Shown here one piece after another: positions 3,074-64,000 of a DNA stretch of 64,000 bases (position 1 is the stretch's first letter; every line of letters begins with the position of its first letter). This stretch comes from Siphonodentalium dalli (taxonomy: Eukaryota > Mollusca > Scaphopoda > Gadilida > Siphonodentaliidae): positions 4,884,976 through 4,948,975 of the forward strand of contig CP136069.1 in assembly GCA_032622095.1 (NCBI GenBank), in the 5' to 3' direction. The notes under the pieces were generated by a model, which was given only the letters and a program-made list of their open reading frames with translations, was not told the origin of the DNA and did no database searches. The translations under genes were made by a program, and so were the position numbers.

Positions 3074-3163
3074 TCACTCTGCCTCCTTCTTTTCGATTGG
3101 CGGATCGGCCGAGACAGGCGTCTCCTCGTTGAACATCGGATTGCTAACGACCATCTCTCCTGT
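3074..3163 (-). CDS. NPDC1: NPDC1-like, last coding exon
   Basis: This exon encodes the C-terminal 29 residues and the stop. Read on the minus strand it starts with Thr-Gly-Glu-Met, contains SNPMFNEE and ends in EKKEAE. TGEM followed by an NP(M/L)F motif matches the end of vertebrate NPDC1 (TGEMEVRNPLF), recalled from the family. The acceptor is a pyrimidine-rich TTTCAG at 3166-3164, and the junction with the previous exon is phase 0 (GLAP/TGEM). The stop TGA lies at 3076-3074. The tail beyond NPMF is acidic and lysine-rich and shorter than the proline-rich mammalian tail. NPDC1 is a single-pass protein of neuronal vesicles and membranes, and this part faces the cytoplasm. The frame, splice site and motif agree, so I am confident. 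Confidence 0.9.
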   Translation of the reverse strand, partial: TGEMVVSNPMFNEETPVSADPPIEKKEAE

Positions 3164-5593: not shown

Positions 5594-5693
5594 CGGAGCG
5601 AGTCCTGGGCACTCGTACACTGTGTAGTCGCCCTCATCGTTCTCTTCGTCGGATTCATCCTCTGATGCATCATGTTTCATTTCACCAGTCGCC
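5594..5693 (-). CDS. NPDC1: NPDC1-like, acidic cytoplasmic exon
   Basis: A 100-nt exon encoding 33 residues plus one base of a split Lys codon. It has an acidic stretch (SEDESDEENDEGD) followed by YTVYECPGLAP. The same order, an acidic cluster then YECPGLAP, is the hallmark of the NPDC1 family C-terminus. The acceptor is TTACTAG ending at 5694, and the donor is CCG/GTAAGT at 5593. The incoming junction is phase 2 (AA/G, Lys) and the outgoing one is phase 0. The acidic region corresponds to the SSDEENEDGDF part of human NPDC1 as I recall it. Family E palindromes lie close on both sides, one ending 24 bp beyond the donor, but the exon is clean. Confidence 0.93.
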
Positions 5694-9822: not shown

Positions 9823-9987
9823 TTCTCCATAGCGATCATCTGCTGCTTCTGATGCTGGTAGTGGTACATCTGAGCACTCTGGGCCAGCTTTCTGTCTCCG
9901 GGCGAGGGGACTTTGTCCTTGGCGGGGCCGGTCACGCCGTAAGCAGGGTACTCAACGTCGCTGTTGGCTTTCACATTCTTCTGGAGT
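9823..9987 (-). CDS. NPDC1: NPDC1-like, juxtamembrane cytoplasmic exon
   Basis: A 165-nt exon encoding 54 complete codons between split Lys codons. It begins LQKNVKANSDVEYPAYG, continues with SPGDRKLAQSAQMYHYQHQ and ends QQMIAME. Vertebrate NPDC1 has SPGDQRLAQSAEMYHYQHQ at the same place, a near-identical signature. The acceptor TTTATTTGCAG ends at 9988, and the donor is GAGAA/GTGAGT at 9822. The 5' junction with the transmembrane exon (TAC AA / A CTC) restores Lys, giving W-Y-K-L-Q, comparable to the C-R-L-Q of the human protein. It is much richer in G and C than the surrounding intron. Nothing in it is broken. Confidence 0.95.
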
Positions 9988-10044: not shown

Positions 10045-10256
10045 TTATTTGCATGAACTCACTTCATGTGAACCCACTTGAAATGAACCCACTTCACATG
10101 AACCCACTTCATGTGAACCCACTTCACACAAACCTACTTAACATGAACATACTTCATGTGAACCTACTTCAAGTGAACCCACTTCACATGAACCTACTTC
10201 ACATGAACCCACTTCACATGGACCCACTTCACATAAACCCACTTCACATAATAATA
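10045..10256 (+). repeat. 15-bp minisatellite
   Basis: About 14 units of ACTTCACATGAACCC and variants, starting roughly 60 bp upstream of the acceptor of the 9823-9987 exon. The long open frame here is only the repeat read in phase. Confidence 0.85.
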
Positions 10257-25057: not shown

Positions 25058-27243
25058 CAGCCACCTCAGATATGGGGACATCATACTGTGATGATCTTAC
25101 TCACGAACCAACCACCTCAGATACGGGGACATCATACTGTGATGATCTTACTCACGAACCAACCACCTCAGATACGGGGGACATCATACTGTGATGATCT
25201 TACTCACGAACCAACCACCTCAGATACGGGGACATCATACTGAGATGATCTTACTCACGAACCAACCACCTCGGATACGGGGGACATCATACTGTGATGA
25301 TCTTACTCACGAACCAGCCACCTCAGATACGGGGGACATCATACTGAGATGATCTTACTCACGAACCAACCACCTCAGATACGGGGACATCATACTGTGA
25401 TGATCTTACTCACGAACCAACCACCTCAGATACGGGGACATCATACTGAGATGATCTTACTCACGAACCAACCACCTCGGATACGGGGGACATCATACTG
25501 TGATGATCTTACTCACGAACCAACCACCTCAGATACGGGGACATCATACTGAGATGATCTTACTCACGAACCAACCACCTCGGATACGGGGGACATCATA
25601 CTGTGATGATCTTACTCACGAACCAACCACCTCAGATACGGGGACATCATACTGAGATGATCTTACTCACGAACCAACCACCTCAGATACGGGGGACATC
25701 ATACTGTGATGATCTTACTCACGAACCAACCACCTCAGATACGGGGGACATTATACTGTGATGATCTTACTCACGAACCAACCACCTCGGATACGGGGGA
25801 CATCATACTGTGATGATCTTACTCACGAACCAACCACCTCAGATACGGGGGACATTATACTGTGATGATCTTACTCATGAACCAACCACCTCGGATACGG
25901 GGGACATCATACTGTGATGATCTTACTCACTAACCAACCACCTCAGATACGGGGACATCATACTGTGATGATCTTACTCACGAACCAACCACCTCAGATA
26001 CGGGGACATCATACTGAGATGATCTTACTCACGAACCAACCACCTCGGATACGGGGGACATCATACTGTGACGATCTTACTCACGAACCAACCACCTCGG
26101 ATACGGGGGACATCATACTGAGATGATCTTACTCACGAACCAACCACCTCAGATACGGGGACATCATACTGTGATGATCTTACTCACGAACCAACCACCT
26201 CAGATACGGGGACATCATACTGAGATGATCTTACTCACGAACCAACCACCTCGGATACGGGGGACATCATACTGTGACGATCTTACTCACGAACCAACCA
26301 CCTCGGATACGGGGGACATCATACTGAGATGATCTTACTCACGAACCAACCACCTCAGATACGGGGACATCATACTGTGATGATCTTACTCACGAACCAA
26401 CCACCTCAGATACAGGGACATCATACTGTGATGATCTTACTCACGAACCAACCACCTCAGATACGGGGACATCATACTGTGATGATCTTACTCACGAACC
26501 AACCACCTCGGATACGGGGACATCATACTGTGATGATCTTACTCACGAACCAACCACCTCAGATACAGGGACATCATACTGTGATGATCTTACTCACGAA
26601 CCAACCACCTCAGATACGGGGACATCATACTGTGATGATCTTACTCACGAACCAACCACCTCGGATACGGGGGACATCATACTGAGATGATCTTACTCAC
26701 GAACCAACCACCTCAGATACGGGGACATCATACTGTGATGATCTTACTCACGAACCAACCACCTCAGATACGGGGACATCATACTGTGATGATCTTACTC
26801 ACGAACCAACCACCTCAGATACGGGGACATCATACTGTGATGATCTTACTCACGAACCAGCCACCTCAGATACGGGGGACATCATACTGAGATGATCTTA
26901 CTCACGAACCAACCACCTCAGATACGGGGGACATCATACTGTGATGATCTTACTCACGAACCAACCACCTCGGATACGGGGGACATCATACTGAGATGAT
27001 CTTACTCACGAACCAACCACCTCAGATACGGGGGACATCATACTGAGATGATCTTACTCACGAACCAACCACCTCAGATACGGGGGACATCATACTGAGA
27101 TGATCTTACTCACGAACCAACCACCTCAGATACGGGGACATCATACTGTGATGATCTTACTCACGAACCAACCACCTCAGATACGGGGACATCATACTGA
27201 GATGATCTTACTCACGAACCAACCACCTCGGATACAGGGGACA
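25058..27243 (+). repeat. 51/52-bp satellite, about 42 units
   Basis: Unit GATCTTACTCACGAACCAAC, CACCTCAGATACGGGG, ACATCATACTGTGAT. Units vary at TCAGATA/TCGGATA, TGTGATG/TGAGATG and four or five G. The 51-bp units keep a 17-residue open frame (DDLTHEPTTSDTGDIIL) and the 52-bp units break it. Not a gene and not CRISPR: no spacers. Confidence 0.95.
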
Positions 27244-27345
27244 TTAGGGTTAGAGTTAGGCTCTGGATATCATTAGGTTATCTAGAGCCTAACCCTAACC
27301 CCAATGGCATGTAGAGCCTAACCCTAACACTAACCCTTATGGTAT
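27243..27345. repeat. short telomere-like tract
   Basis: TTAGGGTTAGAGTTAGG, then CCTAACCCTAACCCC and CCTAACCCTAACACTAACCC. AGAGCCTAACCCTAAC occurs twice. It may be chance or an interstitial remnant. Confidence 0.4.
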
Positions 27346-30664: not shown

Positions 30665-33600
30665 TGATGGTGTATCACTCATTCCATGTTAAATCCTGAT
30701 AATGCCACAAGTTGGTTGGGAGAGGGGTATGGTGTATCACTCATTCCATGTTAAATCCTGGTTATGCCACAAGTTGGTTGGGAATGGGGTATGGTGTATC
30801 ACTCATTCCATGTTAAATCCTGATAATGCCACAAGTTGGTTGTGAGGGGGGTATAGTGTATCTCTCATTCCATGTTAAATCCTGGTTATGCCACAAGTTG
30901 GTTGGGAATGGGGTATGGTGTATCACTCGTTCCATGTTAAATCCTGATTATGCCACAAGTTGGTCGGGAGGGGGGTATGGTGTATCACTCATTCCATGTT
31001 AAATCCTGGTTATGCCACAAGTTGGTTGGGAATGGGGTATGGTGTATCACTCATTCCATGTTAAATCCTGATAATGCCACAAGTTGGTTGGGAGAGGGGT
31101 ATGGTGTATCACTCATTCCATGTTAAATCCTGATAATGCCACAAGTTGGTTGGGAGAGGGGTATGGTGTATCACTCATTCCATGTTAAATCCTGATAATG
31201 CCACAAGTTGGTTGGGAGAGGGGTATGGTGTATCACTCATTCCATGTTAAATCCTGATAATGCCACAAGTTGGTTGGGAGAGGGGTATGGTGTATCACTC
31301 ATTCCATGTTAAATCCTGATAATGCCACAAGTTGGTTGGGAGGGGGGTATGGTGTATCACTCATTCCATGTTAAATCCTGATAATGCCACAAGTTGGTTG
31401 GGAGAGGGGTATGGTGTATCACTCATTCCATGTTAAATCCTGATAATGCCACAAGTTGGTTGGGAGAGTGGTATGGTGTATCACTCATTCCATGTTAAAT
31501 CCTGATAATGCCACAAGTTGGTTGGGAGAGGGGTATGGTGTATCACTCATTCCATGTTAAATCCTGATAATGCCACAAGTTGGTTGGGAGAGGGGTATGG
31601 TGTATCACTCATTCCATGTTAAATCCTGGTTATGCCACAAGTTGGTTGGGAATGGGGTATGGTGTATCACTCATTCCATGTTAAATCCTGATTGTGCCAC
31701 AAGTTGGTTGGGAATGGGGTATGGTGTATCACTCATTCCATGTTAAATCCTGATTATGCCACAAGTTGGTTGGGAATGGGGTATGGTGTATCACTCATTC
31801 CATGTTAAATCCTGATTATGCCACAAGTTGGTTGGGAATGGGGTATGGTGTATCACTCATTCCATGTTAAATCCTGATAATGCCACAAGTTGGTTGGGAA
31901 TGGGGTATGGTGTATCACTCATTCCCATGTTAAATCCTGATTATGCCACAAGTTGGTTGGGAGAGGGGTATGGTGTATCACTCATTCCATGTTAAATCCT
32001 GATTATGCTACAAGTTGGTCGGGAGGGGGGTATGGTGTATCACTCATTCCATGTTAAATCCTGATAATGCCACAAGTTGGTTGGGAGGGGGGTATGGTGT
32101 ATCACTCATTCCATGTTAAATCCTAATTATGCCACAAGTTGGTTGGGAGAGGGGTATGGTGTATCACTCATTCCATGTTAAATCCTGATTATGCCACAAG
32201 TTGGTTGGGAGGGGGGTAGGTGTATCACTCATTCCATGTTAAATCCTAATTATGCCACAAGTTGGTTGGGAGAGGGGTATGGTGTATCACTCATTCCATG
32301 TTAAATCCTGATTATGCCACAAGTTGGTTGGGAGGGGGGTAGGTGTATCACTCATTCCATGTTAAATCCTGATAATGCCACAAGTTGGTTGGGAGGGGGG
32401 TATGGTGTATCACTCATTCCATGTTAAATCCTAATTATGCCACAAGTTGGTTGGGAGAGGGGTATGGTGTATCACTCATTCCATGTTAAATCCTGATTAT
32501 GCCACAAGTTGGTTGGGAGGGGGGTAGGTGTATCACTCATTCCATGTTAAATCCTAATTATGCCACAAGTTGGTTGGGAGAGGGGTATGGTGTATCACTC
32601 ATTCCATGTTAAATCCTGATTATGCCACAAGTTGGTTGGGAGGGGGGTAGGTGTATCACTCATTCCATGTTAAATCCTAATTATGCCACAAGTTGGTTGG
32701 GAGAGGGGTATGGTGTATCACTCATTCCATGTTAAATCCTAATTATGCCACAAGTTGGTTGGGAGAGGGGTATGGTGTATCACTCATTCCATGTTAAATC
32801 CTGATTATGCCACAAGTTGGTTGGGAGGGGGGTATGGTGTATCACTCATTCCATGTTAAATCCTGATTATGCCACAAGTTGGTTGGGAGGGGGGTAGGTG
32901 TATCACTCATTCCATGTTAAATCCTGATTATGCCACAAGTTGGTTGGGAGGGGGGTATGGTGTATCACTCATTCCATGTTAAATCCTGATTATGCCACAA
33001 GTTGGTTGGGAGGGGGGTAGGTGTATCACTCATTCCATGTTAAATCCTAATTATGCCACAAGTTGGTTGGGAGGGGGGTATGGTGTATCACTCATTCCAT
33101 GTTAAATCCTAATTATGCCACAAGTTGGTTGGGAGGGGGGTATGGTGTATCACTCATTCCATGTTAAATCCTGATTATGCCACAAGTTGGTTGGGAGGGG
33201 GGTATGGTGTATCACTCATTCCATGTTAAATCCTAATTATGCCACAAGTTGGTTGGGAGGGGGGTATGGTGTATCACTCATTCCATGTTAAATCCTGATA
33301 ATGCCACAAGTTGGTTGGGAGGGGGGTAGGTGTATCACTCATTCCATGTTAAATCCTAATTATGCCACAAGTTGGTTGGGAGGGGGGTATGGTGTATCAC
33401 TCATTCCATGTTAAATCCTGATTATGCCACAAGTTGGTTGGGAGGGGGGTAGGTGTATCACTCATTCCATGTTAAATCCTAATTATGCCACAAGTTGGTC
33501 GGGAGGGGGGTATGGTGTATCACTCATTCCATGTTAAATCCTGATTATGCCACAAGTTGGTTGGGAGGGGGGTATGGTGTATCACTCATTCCATGTTAAA

Positions 33601-33718
33601 TCCTGATTATGCCACAAGTTGGTTGGGAGGGGGGTAGGTGTATCACTCATTCCATGTTAAATCCTGATTATGCCACAAGTTGGTTGGGAATGGGGTATGG
33701 TGTATCACTCGTTCCATG
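30665..33718 (+). repeat. about 62-bp satellite, about 49 units
   Basis: Unit TGGTGTATCACTCATTCCAT, GTTAAATCCTGATTATGCCA, CAAGTTGGTTGGGAGGGG. Variants (GATAATG, GATTATG, AATTATG; GAATGGGG, GAGAGGGG, GAGGGGGG; GTATGG or GTAGG) form blocks and, after 32.1 kb, a two-unit period. Confidence 0.95.
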
Positions 33719-33978
33719 TTAGAGATGTTTTGAAGGGCATCCCCTGGGAATTAAGTTTTGAAAATTCAATGCATTGAGTCAATTTCTTAACAGTAATATC
33801 TTACTTTCAAATATTTAAAAAAGTTTACCCTCCCCCTGTACCTTCAGTCAAATGAGTTGATGTGAATGTGACAGGAATGAAGAATTTACTGCACATGTAT
33901 GTATAGCTTTCAATTTTGAAATATTTACTGTTGGCCAATTGAAAAAAAAAACACCCTGGCCTAATACATGTAGCTGCT

Positions 33979-38333: not shown

Positions 38334-40265
38334 AAGCCTTGAAATAGTGTGTCTGTCAGTTGCAGATTGAGGTCCCCATAGGGTGAATTTAGTGATGCTA
38401 TCCCGCACGGTGGGCTAGTGTCACCAAATTCATACACTGGGAACCTCATTCTTATTAGGCCTTGACAACTGCTAAGGGAGACCAAGGATCATAAGATTAA
38501 AGTTCCCCATTTGAAGTTGCTGATGTTCACCCATTATATAATTAGTCATCTCGATTATATAAGTTGCCGATGTTCACCCATTATATAATTAGTCATCTCG
38601 ATTATATAAGTTGCTGATGTTCACCCATTATATAATTAGTCATCTCGATTATATAAGTTGCCGATGTTCACCCATTATATAATTAGTCATCTCGATTATA
38701 TAAGTTACTGATGTTCACCCATTATATAATTAGTCATCTCGATTATATAAGTTGCTGATGTTCACCCATTATATAATTAGTCATCTCTATTATATAAGTT
38801 GCTGATGTTCACCCATTATATAATTAGTCATCTCGATTATATAAGTTGCGGATGTTCACCCATTATATAATTAGTCATCTCGATTATATAAGTTGCTGAT
38901 GTTCACCCATTATATAATTAGTCATCTCGATTATATAAGTTGCTGATGTTCACCCATTATATAATTAGTCATCTCTATTATATAAGTTGCTGATGTTCAC
39001 CCATTATATAATTAGTCATCTCGATTATATAAGTTGCTGATGTTCACCCATTATATAATTAGTCATCTCTATTATATAAGTTGCTGATGTTCACCCATTA
39101 TATAATTAGTCATCTCGATTATATAAGTTACTGATGTTTGATGTTCACCCATTATATAATTAGTCATCTCGATTATATAAGTTACTGATGTTCACCCATT
39201 ATATAATTAGTCATCTCGATTATATAAGTTGCTGATGTTCACCCATTATATAATTAGTCATCTCGATTATATAAGTTGCTGATGTTCACCCATTATATAA
39301 TTAGTCTTCTCGATTATATAAGTTGCTGATGTTCACCCATTATATAATTAGTCATCTCGATTATATCAGTTGCTGATATTCACCCATTATATAATTAGTC
39401 ATCTCTATTATATAAGTTACTGATGTTCACCCATTATATAATTAGTCATCTCGATTATATAAGTTACTGATGTTCACCCATTATATAATTAGTCATCTCG
39501 ATTATATAAGTTGCTGATGTTCACCCATTATATAATTAGTCATCTCGATTATATAAGTTGATGTTCACCCATTATATAATTAGTCATCTCGATTATATAA
39601 GTTGATGTTCACCCATTATATAATTAGTCATCTCGATTATATAAGTTGCTGATGTTCACCCATTATATAATTAGTCATCTCTATTATATAAGTTGCTGAT
39701 GTTCACCCATTATATAATTAGTCATCTCGATTATATAAGTTACTGATGTTTGATGTTCACCCATTATATAATTAGTCATCTCGATTATATAAGTTACTGA
39801 TGTTCACCCATTATATAATTAGTCATCTCGATTATATAAGTTGCTGATGTTCACCCATTATATAATTAGTCATCTCGATTATATAAGTTGCTGATGTTCA
39901 CCCATTATATAATTAGTCATCTCGATTATATAAGTTGCTGATGTTCACCCATTATATAATTAGTCATCTCGATTATATAAGTTGCTGATGTTCACCCATT
40001 ATATAATTAGTCATCTCGATTATATAAGTTGCTGATGTTCACCCATTATATAATTAGTCATCTCGATTATATAAGTTGCTGATGTTCACCCATTATATAA
40101 TTAGTCATCTCGATTATATAAGTTGCTGATTATTATGCAAATTAGGGGATATAGAGACTGAATAGAAGGGAAAAAGTAACTAAAAACAATGTTAATTTGA
40201 GACTATAGATACTTCCCAGAAGATGAGGCCTAAGCAGAATGAGGTCCCCTGGTGTAAATTTGGTG
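38334..40265. mobile_element. family F element swollen by an internal satellite
   Basis: Opens AAGCCTTGAAATAGTGTGTC and has the F hairpin (38360-38460) and interior. It is then filled by the 47-bp array, and continues with the F interior in order (CAAATTAGGGGATATAGAGA, CTATAGATACTTCCCAGAAG, GCAGAATGAGGTCCCC). Confidence 0.75.
38517..40129 (+). repeat. 47-bp satellite, about 34 units
   Basis: Unit GTTGCTGATGTTCACCCATT, ATATAATTAGTCATCTCGAT, TATATAA. A few units are 44 bp or carry an extra TGATGTT. The unit derives from the F interior. Confidence 0.95.
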
Positions 40266-40373
40266 ATGTTAGCCCACTGTGTATTCAGGGCAACATAGAC
40301 ATGTCCTAACTACATTCCATGGAACATATCTAAGTACACTAAATTCCATTCTAGAAAATTCAGAATTAAAAAA

Positions 40374-40903
40374 ATATTCAATACCACAGCTGAATACCAT
40401 GTATTAAATATTCAATACCACAGCTGAATACCATGTATTAAATATTCAATACCACAGCTGAATACCATGTATTAAATATTCAATACCACAGCTGAATACC
40501 ATGTATTAAATATTCAATACCACAGCTGAATACCATGTATTAAATATTCAATACCACAGCTGAATACCATGTATTAAATATTCAATACCACAGCTGAATA
40601 CCATGTATTAAATATTCAATACCACAGCTGAATACCATGTATTAAATATTCAATACCACAGCTGAATACCATGTATTAAATATTATAAATACCACAGCTG
40701 AATACCATGTATTAAATATTCAATACCACAGCTGAATACCATGTATTAAATATTATAAATACCACAGCTGAATACCATGTATTAAATATTCAATACCACA
40801 GCTGAATACCAAATGTATTAAATATATAAATACCACAGCTGAATACCATGTATTAAATATTCAATACCACAGCTGAATACCAAATGTATTAAATATTATA
40901 AAA
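40374..40903 (+). repeat. 34-bp AT-rich satellite, about 16 units
   Basis: Unit TATTCAATACCACAGCTGAA, TACCATGTATTAAA. Late units carry ATATTATAAATACC variants. Confidence 0.95.
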
Positions 40904-60999: not shown

Positions 61000-61137
61000 A
61001 TCGTGTGTGATATAAGAGAATACATTGGCCTAAAAATATTTAGGTTCCCTATGGGAAACTAGCATATATAAGATAATGCACTGGCACAGGGTGTTTAATG
61101 TTGCAGCAGTGCAGCTCTCATCATTAACCCTTTCAGA
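61000..61137 (+). mobile_element. family D fragment
   Basis: ATATAAGAGAATACATTGGC, hairpin tip GGTTCCCTATGGGAAAC, GCAGTGCAGCTCTCATCATT, running into the TTAA of the next element. Confidence 0.6.
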
Positions 61138-61345
61138 GCCAAGTCCGATTTTTGTATCAACCCATATTTCCTTGATCATTTATCATTTTTCAAATTTAAT
61201 GATTATAGTAATGTGATACATTGATGGAAAAAGCTCTTAGAGAACTTTCCATCAATGTATCACATTATTATAATCAATCAATTTGAAAAATAATCAAGGA
61301 AATATGGGTTGATACAAAAATCGGACTTGGCACTGAAAGGGTTAA
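61134..61345. mobile_element. family B variant with a different hairpin core
   Basis: TTAACCCTTTCAGAGCCAAG to CTTGGCACTGAAAGGGTTAA, 212 bp, nearly palindromic throughout (ATTGATGGAAAAAGC / AGAACTTTCCATCAAT at the tip). It keeps the B ends and GATTTTTGTATCAACCC but lacks the shared GCATTCTCTTATATATGC stem. Confidence 0.85.
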
Positions 61346-61373
61346 AGAGTTAAGCTACCACAAATCAACTTAC

Positions 61374-61440
61374 TTGTACCAGCAAACTCCAGCCATGAGC
61401 AAGCCGACCAGTCCAGCCACACTGCATGCTGCAACGATAC
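61374..61440 (-). CDS. NPDC1: NPDC1-like, transmembrane exon
   Basis: A 67-nt exon encoding the transmembrane helix: 21 complete codons from IVAACSVAG through LVGLLMAGVCWY, between a split Gly and a split Lys. All residues up to the final Trp-Tyr suit a single membrane span, and the position matches the LVLILAFCVAGAAAL helix of vertebrate NPDC1. The donor AA/GTAAGTTG is strong, and the acceptor TTTTACAG ends at 61441. The incoming phase is 1 and the outgoing phase is 2. The first 28 nt of this exon, together with the intron end, are the unit of the adjacent 63-bp tandem array. The signal peptide and ectodomain exons were not found and should lie beyond 64000. Confidence 0.88.
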
Positions 61441-63440
61441 CTGTAAAATATAATCGATTATACATGAGATGTTACCCAGCCACACTGCATGCTGCAACGA
61501 TACCTGTAAAATATAATCGATTATACATGAGATGTTATCCAGCCACACTGCATGCTGCAACGATACCTGTAAAATATAATCGATTATACATGAGATGTTA
61601 TCCAGCCACACTGCATGCTGCAACGATACCTGTAAAATATAATCGATTATACATGAGATGTTATCCAGCCACACTGAATGCTGCAACGATACCTGTAAAA
61701 TATAATCGATTATACATGAGATGTTATCCAGCCACACTGCATGCTGCAACGATACCTGTAAAATATAATCGATTATACATGAGATGTTATCCAGCCACAC
61801 TGCATGCTGCAACGATACCTGTAAAATATAATCGATTATACATGAGATGTTATCCAGCCACACTGCATGCTGCAACGATACCTGTAAAATATAATCGATT
61901 ATACATGAGATGTTACCCAGCCACACTGAATGCTGCAACGATACCTGTAAAATATAATCGATTATACATGAGATGTTATCCAGCCACACTGCATGCTGCA
62001 ACGATACCTGTAAAATATAATCGATTATACATGAGATGTTATCCAGCCACACTGCATGCTGCAACGATACCTGTAAAATATAATCGATTATACATGAGAT
62101 GTTATCCAGCCACACTGCATGCTGCAACGATACCTGTAAAATATAATCGATTATACATGAGATGTTACTAAAGCCACACTGCATGCTGCAACGATACCTG
62201 TAAAATATAATCGATTATACATGAGATGTTACCCAGCCACACTGCATGCTGCAACGATACCTGTAAAATATAATCGATTATACATGAGATGTTACTAAAG
62301 CCACACTGAATGCTCCATGATACCTGTAAAATATAATCGATTATAAATGAGATGTTACCCAGCCACACTGCATGCTGCAACGATACCTGTAAAATATAAT
62401 CGATTATACATGAGATGTTATCCAGCCACACTGCATGCTGCAACGATACCTGTAAAATATAATCGATTATACATGAGATGTTATCCAGCCACACTGAATG
62501 CTGCAACGATAGCTGTAAGATATAATCAATTAGCAATAAGATGTTACCCAGCCACGTTGCGATGATACCTGAAAAATATAATCGATTATAGATGAAATGT
62601 TATCCAGCCACACTGCATGCTGCAACGATACCTGTAAAATATAATCGATTATACATGAGATGTTACCCAGCCACACTTCATGCTGCGATGATACCTGTAA
62701 AATATAATCGATTATACATGAGATGTTATCCAGCCACACTGCATGCTGCGATGATACCTGTAAAATATAATCGATTATAGATGAAATGTTATCCAGCCAC
62801 ACTGCATGCTGCAACGATACCTGTAAAATATAATCGATTATACATGAGATGTTACCCAGCCACACTGCATGCTGCAACGATACCTGTAAAATATAATCGA
62901 TTATACATGAGATGTTATCCAGCCACACTGCATGCTGCAACGATACCTGTAAAATATAATCGATTATAAATGAGATGTTATCCAGCCACACTGCATGCTG
63001 CGATGATACCTGTAAAATATAATCGATTATACATGAGATGTTATCCAGCCACACTGCATGCTGCAACGATACCTGTAAAATATAATCGATTATACATGAG
63101 ATGTTACCCAGCAACACTGCATGCTGCTACGACACCAGTAAAATATAATCGATTATAGATGAAATGTTATCCAGCCATATGATCGATTATAAATGAGATG
63201 TTAGCCAGCCACGTTGCGATGATACCTGTAAAATATAATCGATTATAGATGAAATGTTATCCAGCCATATGATCGATTATAAATGAGATGTTAGCCAGCC
63301 ACGTTGCGATGATACCTGTAAAATATAATCGATTATAGATGAAATATTATCCAGCAACGTTGCGACAATACCTGTAAAATAAAATCAATTATAAATGAGA
63401 TATTGCCAAGCCACATACAATGATACCTGTAAAATATAAT
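61410..63440 (-). repeat. 63-bp satellite made of the NPDC1 acceptor and exon start
   Basis: In gene sense the unit is ATAACATCTCATGTATAATC, GATTATATTTTACAG, GTATCGTTGCAGCATGCAGT, GTGGCTGG. About 26 regular units run to about 63170; divergent and shortened units continue to about 63440. One break at about 62168 adds 3 bp, and a few units are internally deleted. The 280- and 195-residue open frames are this repeat read in a non-gene phase. Confidence 0.95.
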
Positions 63441-63629
63441 CGATTAGAACTGAGATGATAACCATTCACAACGCATTTTGCGACTGTACTAGTATCTGTA
63501 AAACATACCGGTATTATCACCGGTCCATATTCGCCATATTTGAACTTAGCCCTGTTGCTCAATTTAGTGTGTGTTTTATGAATTAATGTGAATTAATGTT
63601 TCTAAAGTTTGGCCATTCCACATTCATCA

Positions 63630-63987
63630 TTAACCCTTTACCCAACAAACCGGCCAAAACCGGCCAAATAAAGCTTCAACAGCCTAAAATATCTTCGGTC
63701 TGTCTCAATAGAACCATACAAATATGGATATCATTGGAACCGGCTCCTTGACCACATTGTGATAGTTACAGTTATGCCCTGTGCCAATGCATTCTCTTAT
63801 ATATGCGAGTCGACCATAGGTCGCCTCGCATATATAAGAGAATGCATTCTTACATTCTTTAACAATTTTATAATTTTTAATGTGTTAAGCCAATGCATTC
63901 TCTTATATATGCGAGGTGACCTATGGTCGACTCGCATATATAAGAGAATGCATTGGCACAGGGCCCTTCTGTTGGGTAAAGGGTTAA
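63630..63987 (+). mobile_element. family A MITE, spacer deleted
   Basis: 358 bp with both TTAA. The first hairpin runs directly into TTCTTACATTCTTTAACAAT after GAATGCA, so part of the spacer is gone. It lies in the NPDC1 intron upstream of the transmembrane exon. Confidence 0.87.
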
Positions 63988-64000
63988 TTAGCTGCCTCCA

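What the first reader, a model, noticed from the sequence alone, without database searches (positions are those of the whole stretch)
61374..63440. Satellite built from a splice acceptor: about 28 decoy 3' splice sites before the NPDC1 transmembrane exon
Each 63-bp unit holds the intron end (ATTATATTTTACAG) and the first 28 nt of the transmembrane exon. The transcript meets all the decoys before the true acceptor at 61441. In the gene's phase a decoy reads I-V-A-A-C-S-V-A-G and then TAA, from GCTGGATAAC or GCTGGGTAAC. Use of any decoy would therefore remove the membrane helix and stop translation, giving a soluble ectodomain or a decayed message. 63 is divisible by 3, so the phase is the same in every unit.
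Basis: partly seen in the sequence, partly recalled or inferred. Interest (0 to 1): 0.88.

Follow-up and report, generated by a model that had tools for sequence, protein, structure and literature searches.

The report
Repeat array copying an exon's edge
In what looks like a mollusc's NPDC1 gene, a short stretch spanning the edge of the membrane-anchor exon is repeated head to tail some thirty times in the intron before it, a known type of repeat (mirage minisatellite) whose effect on splicing has not been tested here.

Summary
The array is real. On the minus strand, 32 copies of a 3' splice-site unit (mostly 63 bp) lie directly upstream of the NPDC1 transmembrane exon (61374-61440); 29 keep AG|GT and 27 are exact over a 16-base acceptor core. 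The upstream exon was found outside the window; its last base joins in phase across a 42,465-nt intron. The copied exon start is recognisable in NPDC1 relatives, and genome searches matched the array only here, so the exon is the likely source. Divergence rises with distance from the exon. Read from the upstream exon, 32 of 32 decoys meet a stop. This architecture matches the 'mirage' minisatellites of amphioxus, where RT-PCR suggested regular splicing despite repeated AG/GT signals. Tandem arrays of 500 bp or more fill 21% of the 203-kb region examined. Nothing here shows that decoys are used: no transcript of this species was found, and decoy AG|GT shows no clear extra conservation. Verdict: observation confirmed with corrections; decoy function unproven; new member of a known kind, apparently in a mollusc.

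The parts
61374..61440 (-). NPDC1 transmembrane exon, 67 nt, phase 1 start (G|GT); GIVAACSVAGLVGLLMAGVCWYK
61441..61474 (-). true 3' splice site region: TAAC (possible branch point) to ACAG, identical to array consensus
   Evidence: branch point is inference
61412..63177 (-). 63-bp tandem array, about 28 copies, each carrying the intron end plus first 28 nt of the exon; the 11 decoys nearest the exon differ from consensus by 0-2 positions
63178..63460 (-). distal, diverged part of the array (55-90 bp spacing, exon part shortened)
63461..63530 (-). most decayed copy, acceptor-like site at 63495 (ACAG|AT)
   Evidence: homology of its exon part judged by eye
9823..9987 (-). next NPDC1 coding exon (LQKNVKANSDVEYPAYGVTGP...IAME)
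5594..5693 (-). NPDC1 coding exon (ATGEMKHDASEDESDEENDEGDYTVYECPGLAP)
3074..3163 (-). last NPDC1 coding exon (TGEMVVSNPMFNEETPVSADPPIEKKEAE, stop)

Best explanation
A locus-specific minisatellite of the 'mirage' type: a 63-bp segment straddling the intron/exon boundary was tandemly duplicated into the intron and amplified about thirty-fold, with the youngest copies next to the exon and decayed ones at the far end (anatomy shown; direction of copying and growth inferred). Intact units repeat a whole acceptor (TAAC about 31 nt before the end of ACAG|GT; branch point inferred). Most likely the real acceptor still makes the bulk of NPDC1 mRNA, because it defines a normal 67-nt exon with the nearby donor, while the nearest decoys leak some 130/193/256-nt exons whose early stop sends the message to decay. 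That splicing outcome is inferred, not shown.
For: Array anatomy. The exon start is recognisable in relatives: majority IVAACSVAG over 18 aligned sequences, 9 of 9 identical in Patella P0001. Array DNA matched only this locus in the 2.23-Gb genome (13 of 13 hits; 7 of 7; the search skips very common words). Divergence rises with distance: Spearman 0.63 over 32 decoys, p 1.3e-4; 0.58 over 31, p 5.5e-4, counting substitutions only and leaving out the decayed copy 63495. Decoy exonic codons drift: 7 of 9 changes nonsynonymous in 23 regular units, 9 irregular ones left out. Region rich in arrays: 42,463 of 202,801 bases. Same architecture in amphioxus BflGb6, with RT-PCR suggesting regular splicing.
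Against: No transcript, raw read or sister-species DNA could be examined, so array length, its presence in raw reads and the splicing outcome are untested. The nearest decoys would define exons of ordinary size, so leakage could be larger than assumed. The true site's pyrimidine tract is weaker than those of the other three exons (10 of 17 against 13, 13 and 15 of 17). The exon start is not uniformly conserved: IVAACSVAG is exact in only 1 of 17 relatives, and three gastropods (P0064, P0055, P0077) differ strongly. Homogenisation of the exon by the array is not excluded.
Confidence: 0.75

Rival explanations
1. Decoy attenuator: decoys compete effectively with the true acceptor, so that most transcripts stop within the helix, giving a decayed message or a truncated ectodomain; unit number sets the NPDC1 level.
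For: Most decoys carry the same or nearly the same 34 intronic nt as the true site, and 32 of 32 lead to a stop.
Against: No RNA evidence; no decoy-terminated protein found (4 candidates, none at E 0.1 or better); decoy AG|GT not clearly conserved; amphioxus mirages spliced regularly; exon definition should favour the true site and a few neighbours (inference).
Confidence: 0.15
2. Dual-specific / recursive splicing array: each AG|GT can act as acceptor and then as donor, so a transcript that enters at a decoy can be re-spliced to a later AG without leaving a scar.
For: 29 of 32 decoys keep AG|GT; tandem arrays of dual-specific sites are used in human UBC, and such repeat expansions are argued to be less harmful because they can be spliced out (PMC10809524: abstract, sections 7 and 9).
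Against: The regenerated donor TAG|GTATCG is weak: -0.73 against 4.49 for the native donor on a human matrix that I recalled from memory; 63 nt would be a very short intron (general knowledge).
Confidence: 0.06
3. Transcription-factor site array: most units carry the palindrome ATAATCGATTAT, which resembles (from recall) CUT/ONECUT sites; [quoted passage not shown] elegans (PMC10515288, passages).
For: 29 copies of ATAATCGATTAT and 30 of AATCGATT in the array.
Against: No enrichment outside the array: 4 AATCGATT found, 5.4 expected in the rest of the 203-kb region. The palindrome comes along with any amplification of the unit. The review has no passage with the motif letters searched for.
Confidence: 0.04

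Closest known systems
Mirage minisatellites of amphioxus (Adh3; globins BflGb6, BflGb9); PMC3087553 passages seen; the original Canestro 2002 paper is not held
   Same: Tandem repeats span an exon-intron boundary; BflGb6 repeats the intron 3' end plus the 5' part of the exon; many units keep AG/GT; cluster boundary escapes homogenisation.
   Different: Here apparently a mollusc, mostly 63-bp units, 32 extra copies against 6 and 3 in the two BflGb6 haplotypes; splicing and length variation not measured.
Human UBC and other repeat genes with dual-specific splice sites (PMC10809524; abstract, sections 7 and 9)
   Same: Tandem AG|GT sites at regular spacing, unit length a multiple of three.
   Different: UBC units are coding and in frame; here each unit brings a stop and lies in an intron.
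Interferon-induced minisatellite giving multiple splice donors (1995 NAR paper; only its title seen, in a reference list; gene name 6-16/IFI6 from recall and listings 22, 27)
   Same: A minisatellite that multiplies a splice site.
   Different: Donor rather than acceptor (by its title).
[quoted passage not shown] PMC4974935 passages)
   Same: Duplicated segment brings splice signals with it; the potato case copied an intron-exon structure with branch site, tract and 3' site.
   Different: No evidence here that a new intron or exon is used.

Membership tests
Mirage minisatellite | Tandem repeats that span an exon-intron boundary | tested here: met
Mirage minisatellite | Many units retain AG/GT splice signals | tested here: met
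   29 of 32 decoys
Mirage minisatellite | Homogenised interior with a divergent cluster boundary | tested here: met
   (divergent at the distal edge only; the exon-side edge is homogeneous)
Mirage minisatellite | Length instability between alleles | not testable with these tools
   one assembly only
Mirage minisatellite | Regular mRNA splicing is maintained | not testable with these tools
   no transcripts found
Dual-specific splice site array (UBC-like) | AG|GT at each unit | tested here: met
   29 of 32 decoys
Dual-specific splice site array (UBC-like) | Sites used as both donor and acceptor | not testable with these tools
   donor strength poor on a recalled matrix
Recursive splice site | Strong regenerated donor after the AG | tested here: inconclusive
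   GTATCG, -0.73 against native 4.49 on a recalled human matrix
NPDC1 gene family | PF06809 match | tested here: met
   E 1.2e-18; homologues

The most novel reading that the evidence does not exclude
The array is a length-tunable attenuator of a conserved neuronal membrane protein: entry at one of 29 AG|GT decoy acceptors, with or without scarless re-splicing, sets how much full-length NPDC1 is made, and unit number varies between individuals.
Probability: 0.08. Interest if true: 0.75.

Novelty: new member of a known kind. Interest (0 to 1): 0.4.

Why it matters
It appears to take mirage minisatellites, which the paper seen here calls possibly general in cephalochordates, to another phylum, and it supplies a clean natural test of how the spliceosome chooses among dozens of near-identical acceptors. 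If decoys are ignored, that measures exon definition; if they are used, unit number is a heritable dial on a neuronal gene. It also offers raw material for intron gain.

Tried and rejected
RNA structure across the exon and first three decoys as a masking device: no better than shuffles, z 0.12, 101 of 200 shuffles as good. Rfam: 0 matches at gathering scores in the window. Array as part of a dispersed mobile element: no copies elsewhere found (very common words are skipped). Selection on decoy splice signals, in 8 diverged units that I chose: AG|GT 2 of 32 cells changed, TAAC 4 of 32, other intron positions 22 of 224, exon +3 to +10 13 of 58; no clear constraint against the intron, fewer changes than the exon part. 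Intronic against exonic substitution in 23 regular units (0.008 against 0.019 per site) leans towards a constrained intron part but was not relied on, because shared variants are not independent. CUT/ONECUT enrichment outside the array: none. Own-species transcript or decoy-terminated protein: none (in one search the best of 120 listed relatives is 85% identical). The first regex scans for upstream exons failed; the scan with the predicted FI-G junction succeeded. Whether the genome has another NPDC1 gene is unknown, because that search did not complete. Paper searches: 13, 22, 23, 27, 32, 46, 47, 48, 63, 64; open-licence papers only. Papers opened but not used: PMC4039745 (abstract and outline), PMC3039753 (passages).

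Full report
What is there. On the minus strand the exon at 61374-61440 reads GIVAACSVAGLVGLLMAGVCWYK (first and last codons completed by the neighbouring exons) and, with the next coding exon at 9823-9987, matches Pfam NPDC1 (E 1.2e-18). Two further coding exons lie at 5594-5693 and 3074-3163; all four have AG/GT borders or the stop where expected. A search with the C-terminal 140 residues gave 1816 proteins at E up to 0.001, of which the best 120 were listed; the best named relative is from Patella vulgata at 85% identity, and the named hits near the top are molluscs. The genome is therefore most likely a mollusc's; it is held without a name (2.23 Gb in 9 contigs). The upstream exon lies outside the window: its last base is window-equivalent 103906 (G000:C9:4988881), in ...GNALGSDAIFI-G|GTATGT. 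That base completes a glycine codon with the GT that opens the transmembrane exon, as in relative P0002 (FIGIVAACS). The intron is 61441-103905, 42,465 nt. Exons further upstream were not found.

The array. Upstream of the exon, in the intron, the 34 intronic nt before the acceptor plus the first 28 nt of the exon are repeated. TRF gives 28.1 copies of 63 bp at 61412-63177. Recognisable acceptor-like sites number 32 upstream of the true one; 29 keep AG|GT and 27 are exact over ATTATATTTTACAGGT (28 matches with the true one, 0 in 100 shuffles). Spacing is 63 for most, 64 at 62133/62197, and 55, 56, 69 or 90 in diverged or distal parts. Counting gap columns, the 11 decoys next to the exon differ from the consensus by 0.4 positions on average, the middle 10 by 5.0, the distal 11 by 12.7 (Spearman 0.63, p 1.3e-4). 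Counting substitutions only and leaving out the badly aligned copy 63495, the means are 0.4, 3.4 and 4.5 (Spearman 0.58, p 5.5e-4, 31 decoys). Some diverged units carry a shortened exon part, and several carry ATCATC in place of ATCGTT.

Origin. Over 18 aligned sequences (the query and 17 relatives that I chose from the 120 listed, molluscs with a nemertean, an annelid and a brachiopod) the majority reads IVAACSVAGLVGLIMAGVCWYKL. The nine residues IVAACSVAG are exact in 1 of 17 relatives, five share AACSVAG, and three gastropods differ strongly there. The exon is thus recognisably an old part of NPDC1, while the array matched nothing elsewhere in the genome. The natural reading is that the exon edge was copied into the intron; later conversion of the exon by the array remains possible. 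In 23 regular units 7 of 9 codon changes are nonsynonymous (shared variants counted once per unit). Tandem arrays are common here: 13 arrays of 500 bp or more fill 42,463 of 202,801 bases, so an array that overlaps an exon edge somewhere is not in itself surprising.

Consequences if a decoy were used. In the upstream exon's phase, 32 of 32 decoys meet a stop: 23 after ...SVAG, the rest elsewhere (which assumes no further splicing before the donor at 61373). In most units the stop TAA is the same TAA as in the likely branch-point motif of the next unit (inference). The product would keep the hydrophobic stretch AIFIGIVAACSVAG, so 'soluble ectodomain' is uncertain; with three coding exons downstream, decay of the message is the likelier outcome (general knowledge).

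Are decoys used? Not known. Most decoys and the true site share the same intronic signals, so strength alone does not separate them. Exon definition would favour the 67-nt true exon and a few neighbours of 130, 193 and 256 nt (lengths; preference is inference). The true site's pyrimidine content is lower than that of the other three acceptors (10 of 17 against 13, 13 and 15 of 17). Decoy AG|GT changed in 2 of 32 cells of 8 chosen diverged units, other intron positions in 22 of 224, the near exon part in 13 of 58: no clear sign of selection, though less change than in the exon part. Re-splicing from a decoy would leave no scar, but the regenerated donor is poor on a recalled human matrix (-0.73 against 4.49). 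RNA folding is unremarkable. No protein of this species, whole or decoy-terminated, was found.

Known precedent. Amphioxus genes carry tandem duplications of exon-intron boundaries called mirages. [quoted passage not shown] many but not all units contain AG/GT; Adh3 data and globin RT-PCR suggested no interference with regular splicing; the authors propose them as a source of new introns (PMC3087553, passages). Related ideas are the Rogers AGGT duplication model (PMC4974935, passages), dual-specific splice sites in UBC (PMC10809524, abstract and two sections) and a minisatellite that multiplies donors in an interferon-induced transcript (title only). I saw no report of a mollusc case in searches, but these did not ask for molluscs and cover open-licence papers only.

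Verdict. Observation sound, with corrections; regulatory reading unproven and weakened by the amphioxus precedent; new member of a known kind, worth a simple long-read cDNA test.

Noticed in passing
window 10052-10249: A 15-bp tandem array (13 copies) ends about 65 bases upstream of the next NPDC1 exon's acceptor (9987); it does not include the boundary.
   Followed up: partly
window 61121-61348 and 63629-63988: Inverted repeats with TTAACCCTTT-type ends flank the exon and array on both sides, like miniature inverted-repeat elements.
   Followed up: no
window 25061-27244, 30667-33721, 38514-40130, 40372-40897: Other long minisatellites (51, 62, 47 and 34 bp units) in the following NPDC1 intron; a search for copies of one of them elsewhere did not complete.
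   Followed up: no
window-equivalent 72213-89590 (L022 to L024): A 17.4-kb array of a 134-bp unit (about 130 copies, 98% matches) lies in the same 42-kb intron, upstream of the 63-bp array.
   Followed up: no
window units at 63009, 62757, 62694: These units read IIAA rather than IVAA in the exon part, the state seen in Octopus P0039; they may record an older exon sequence.
   Followed up: no
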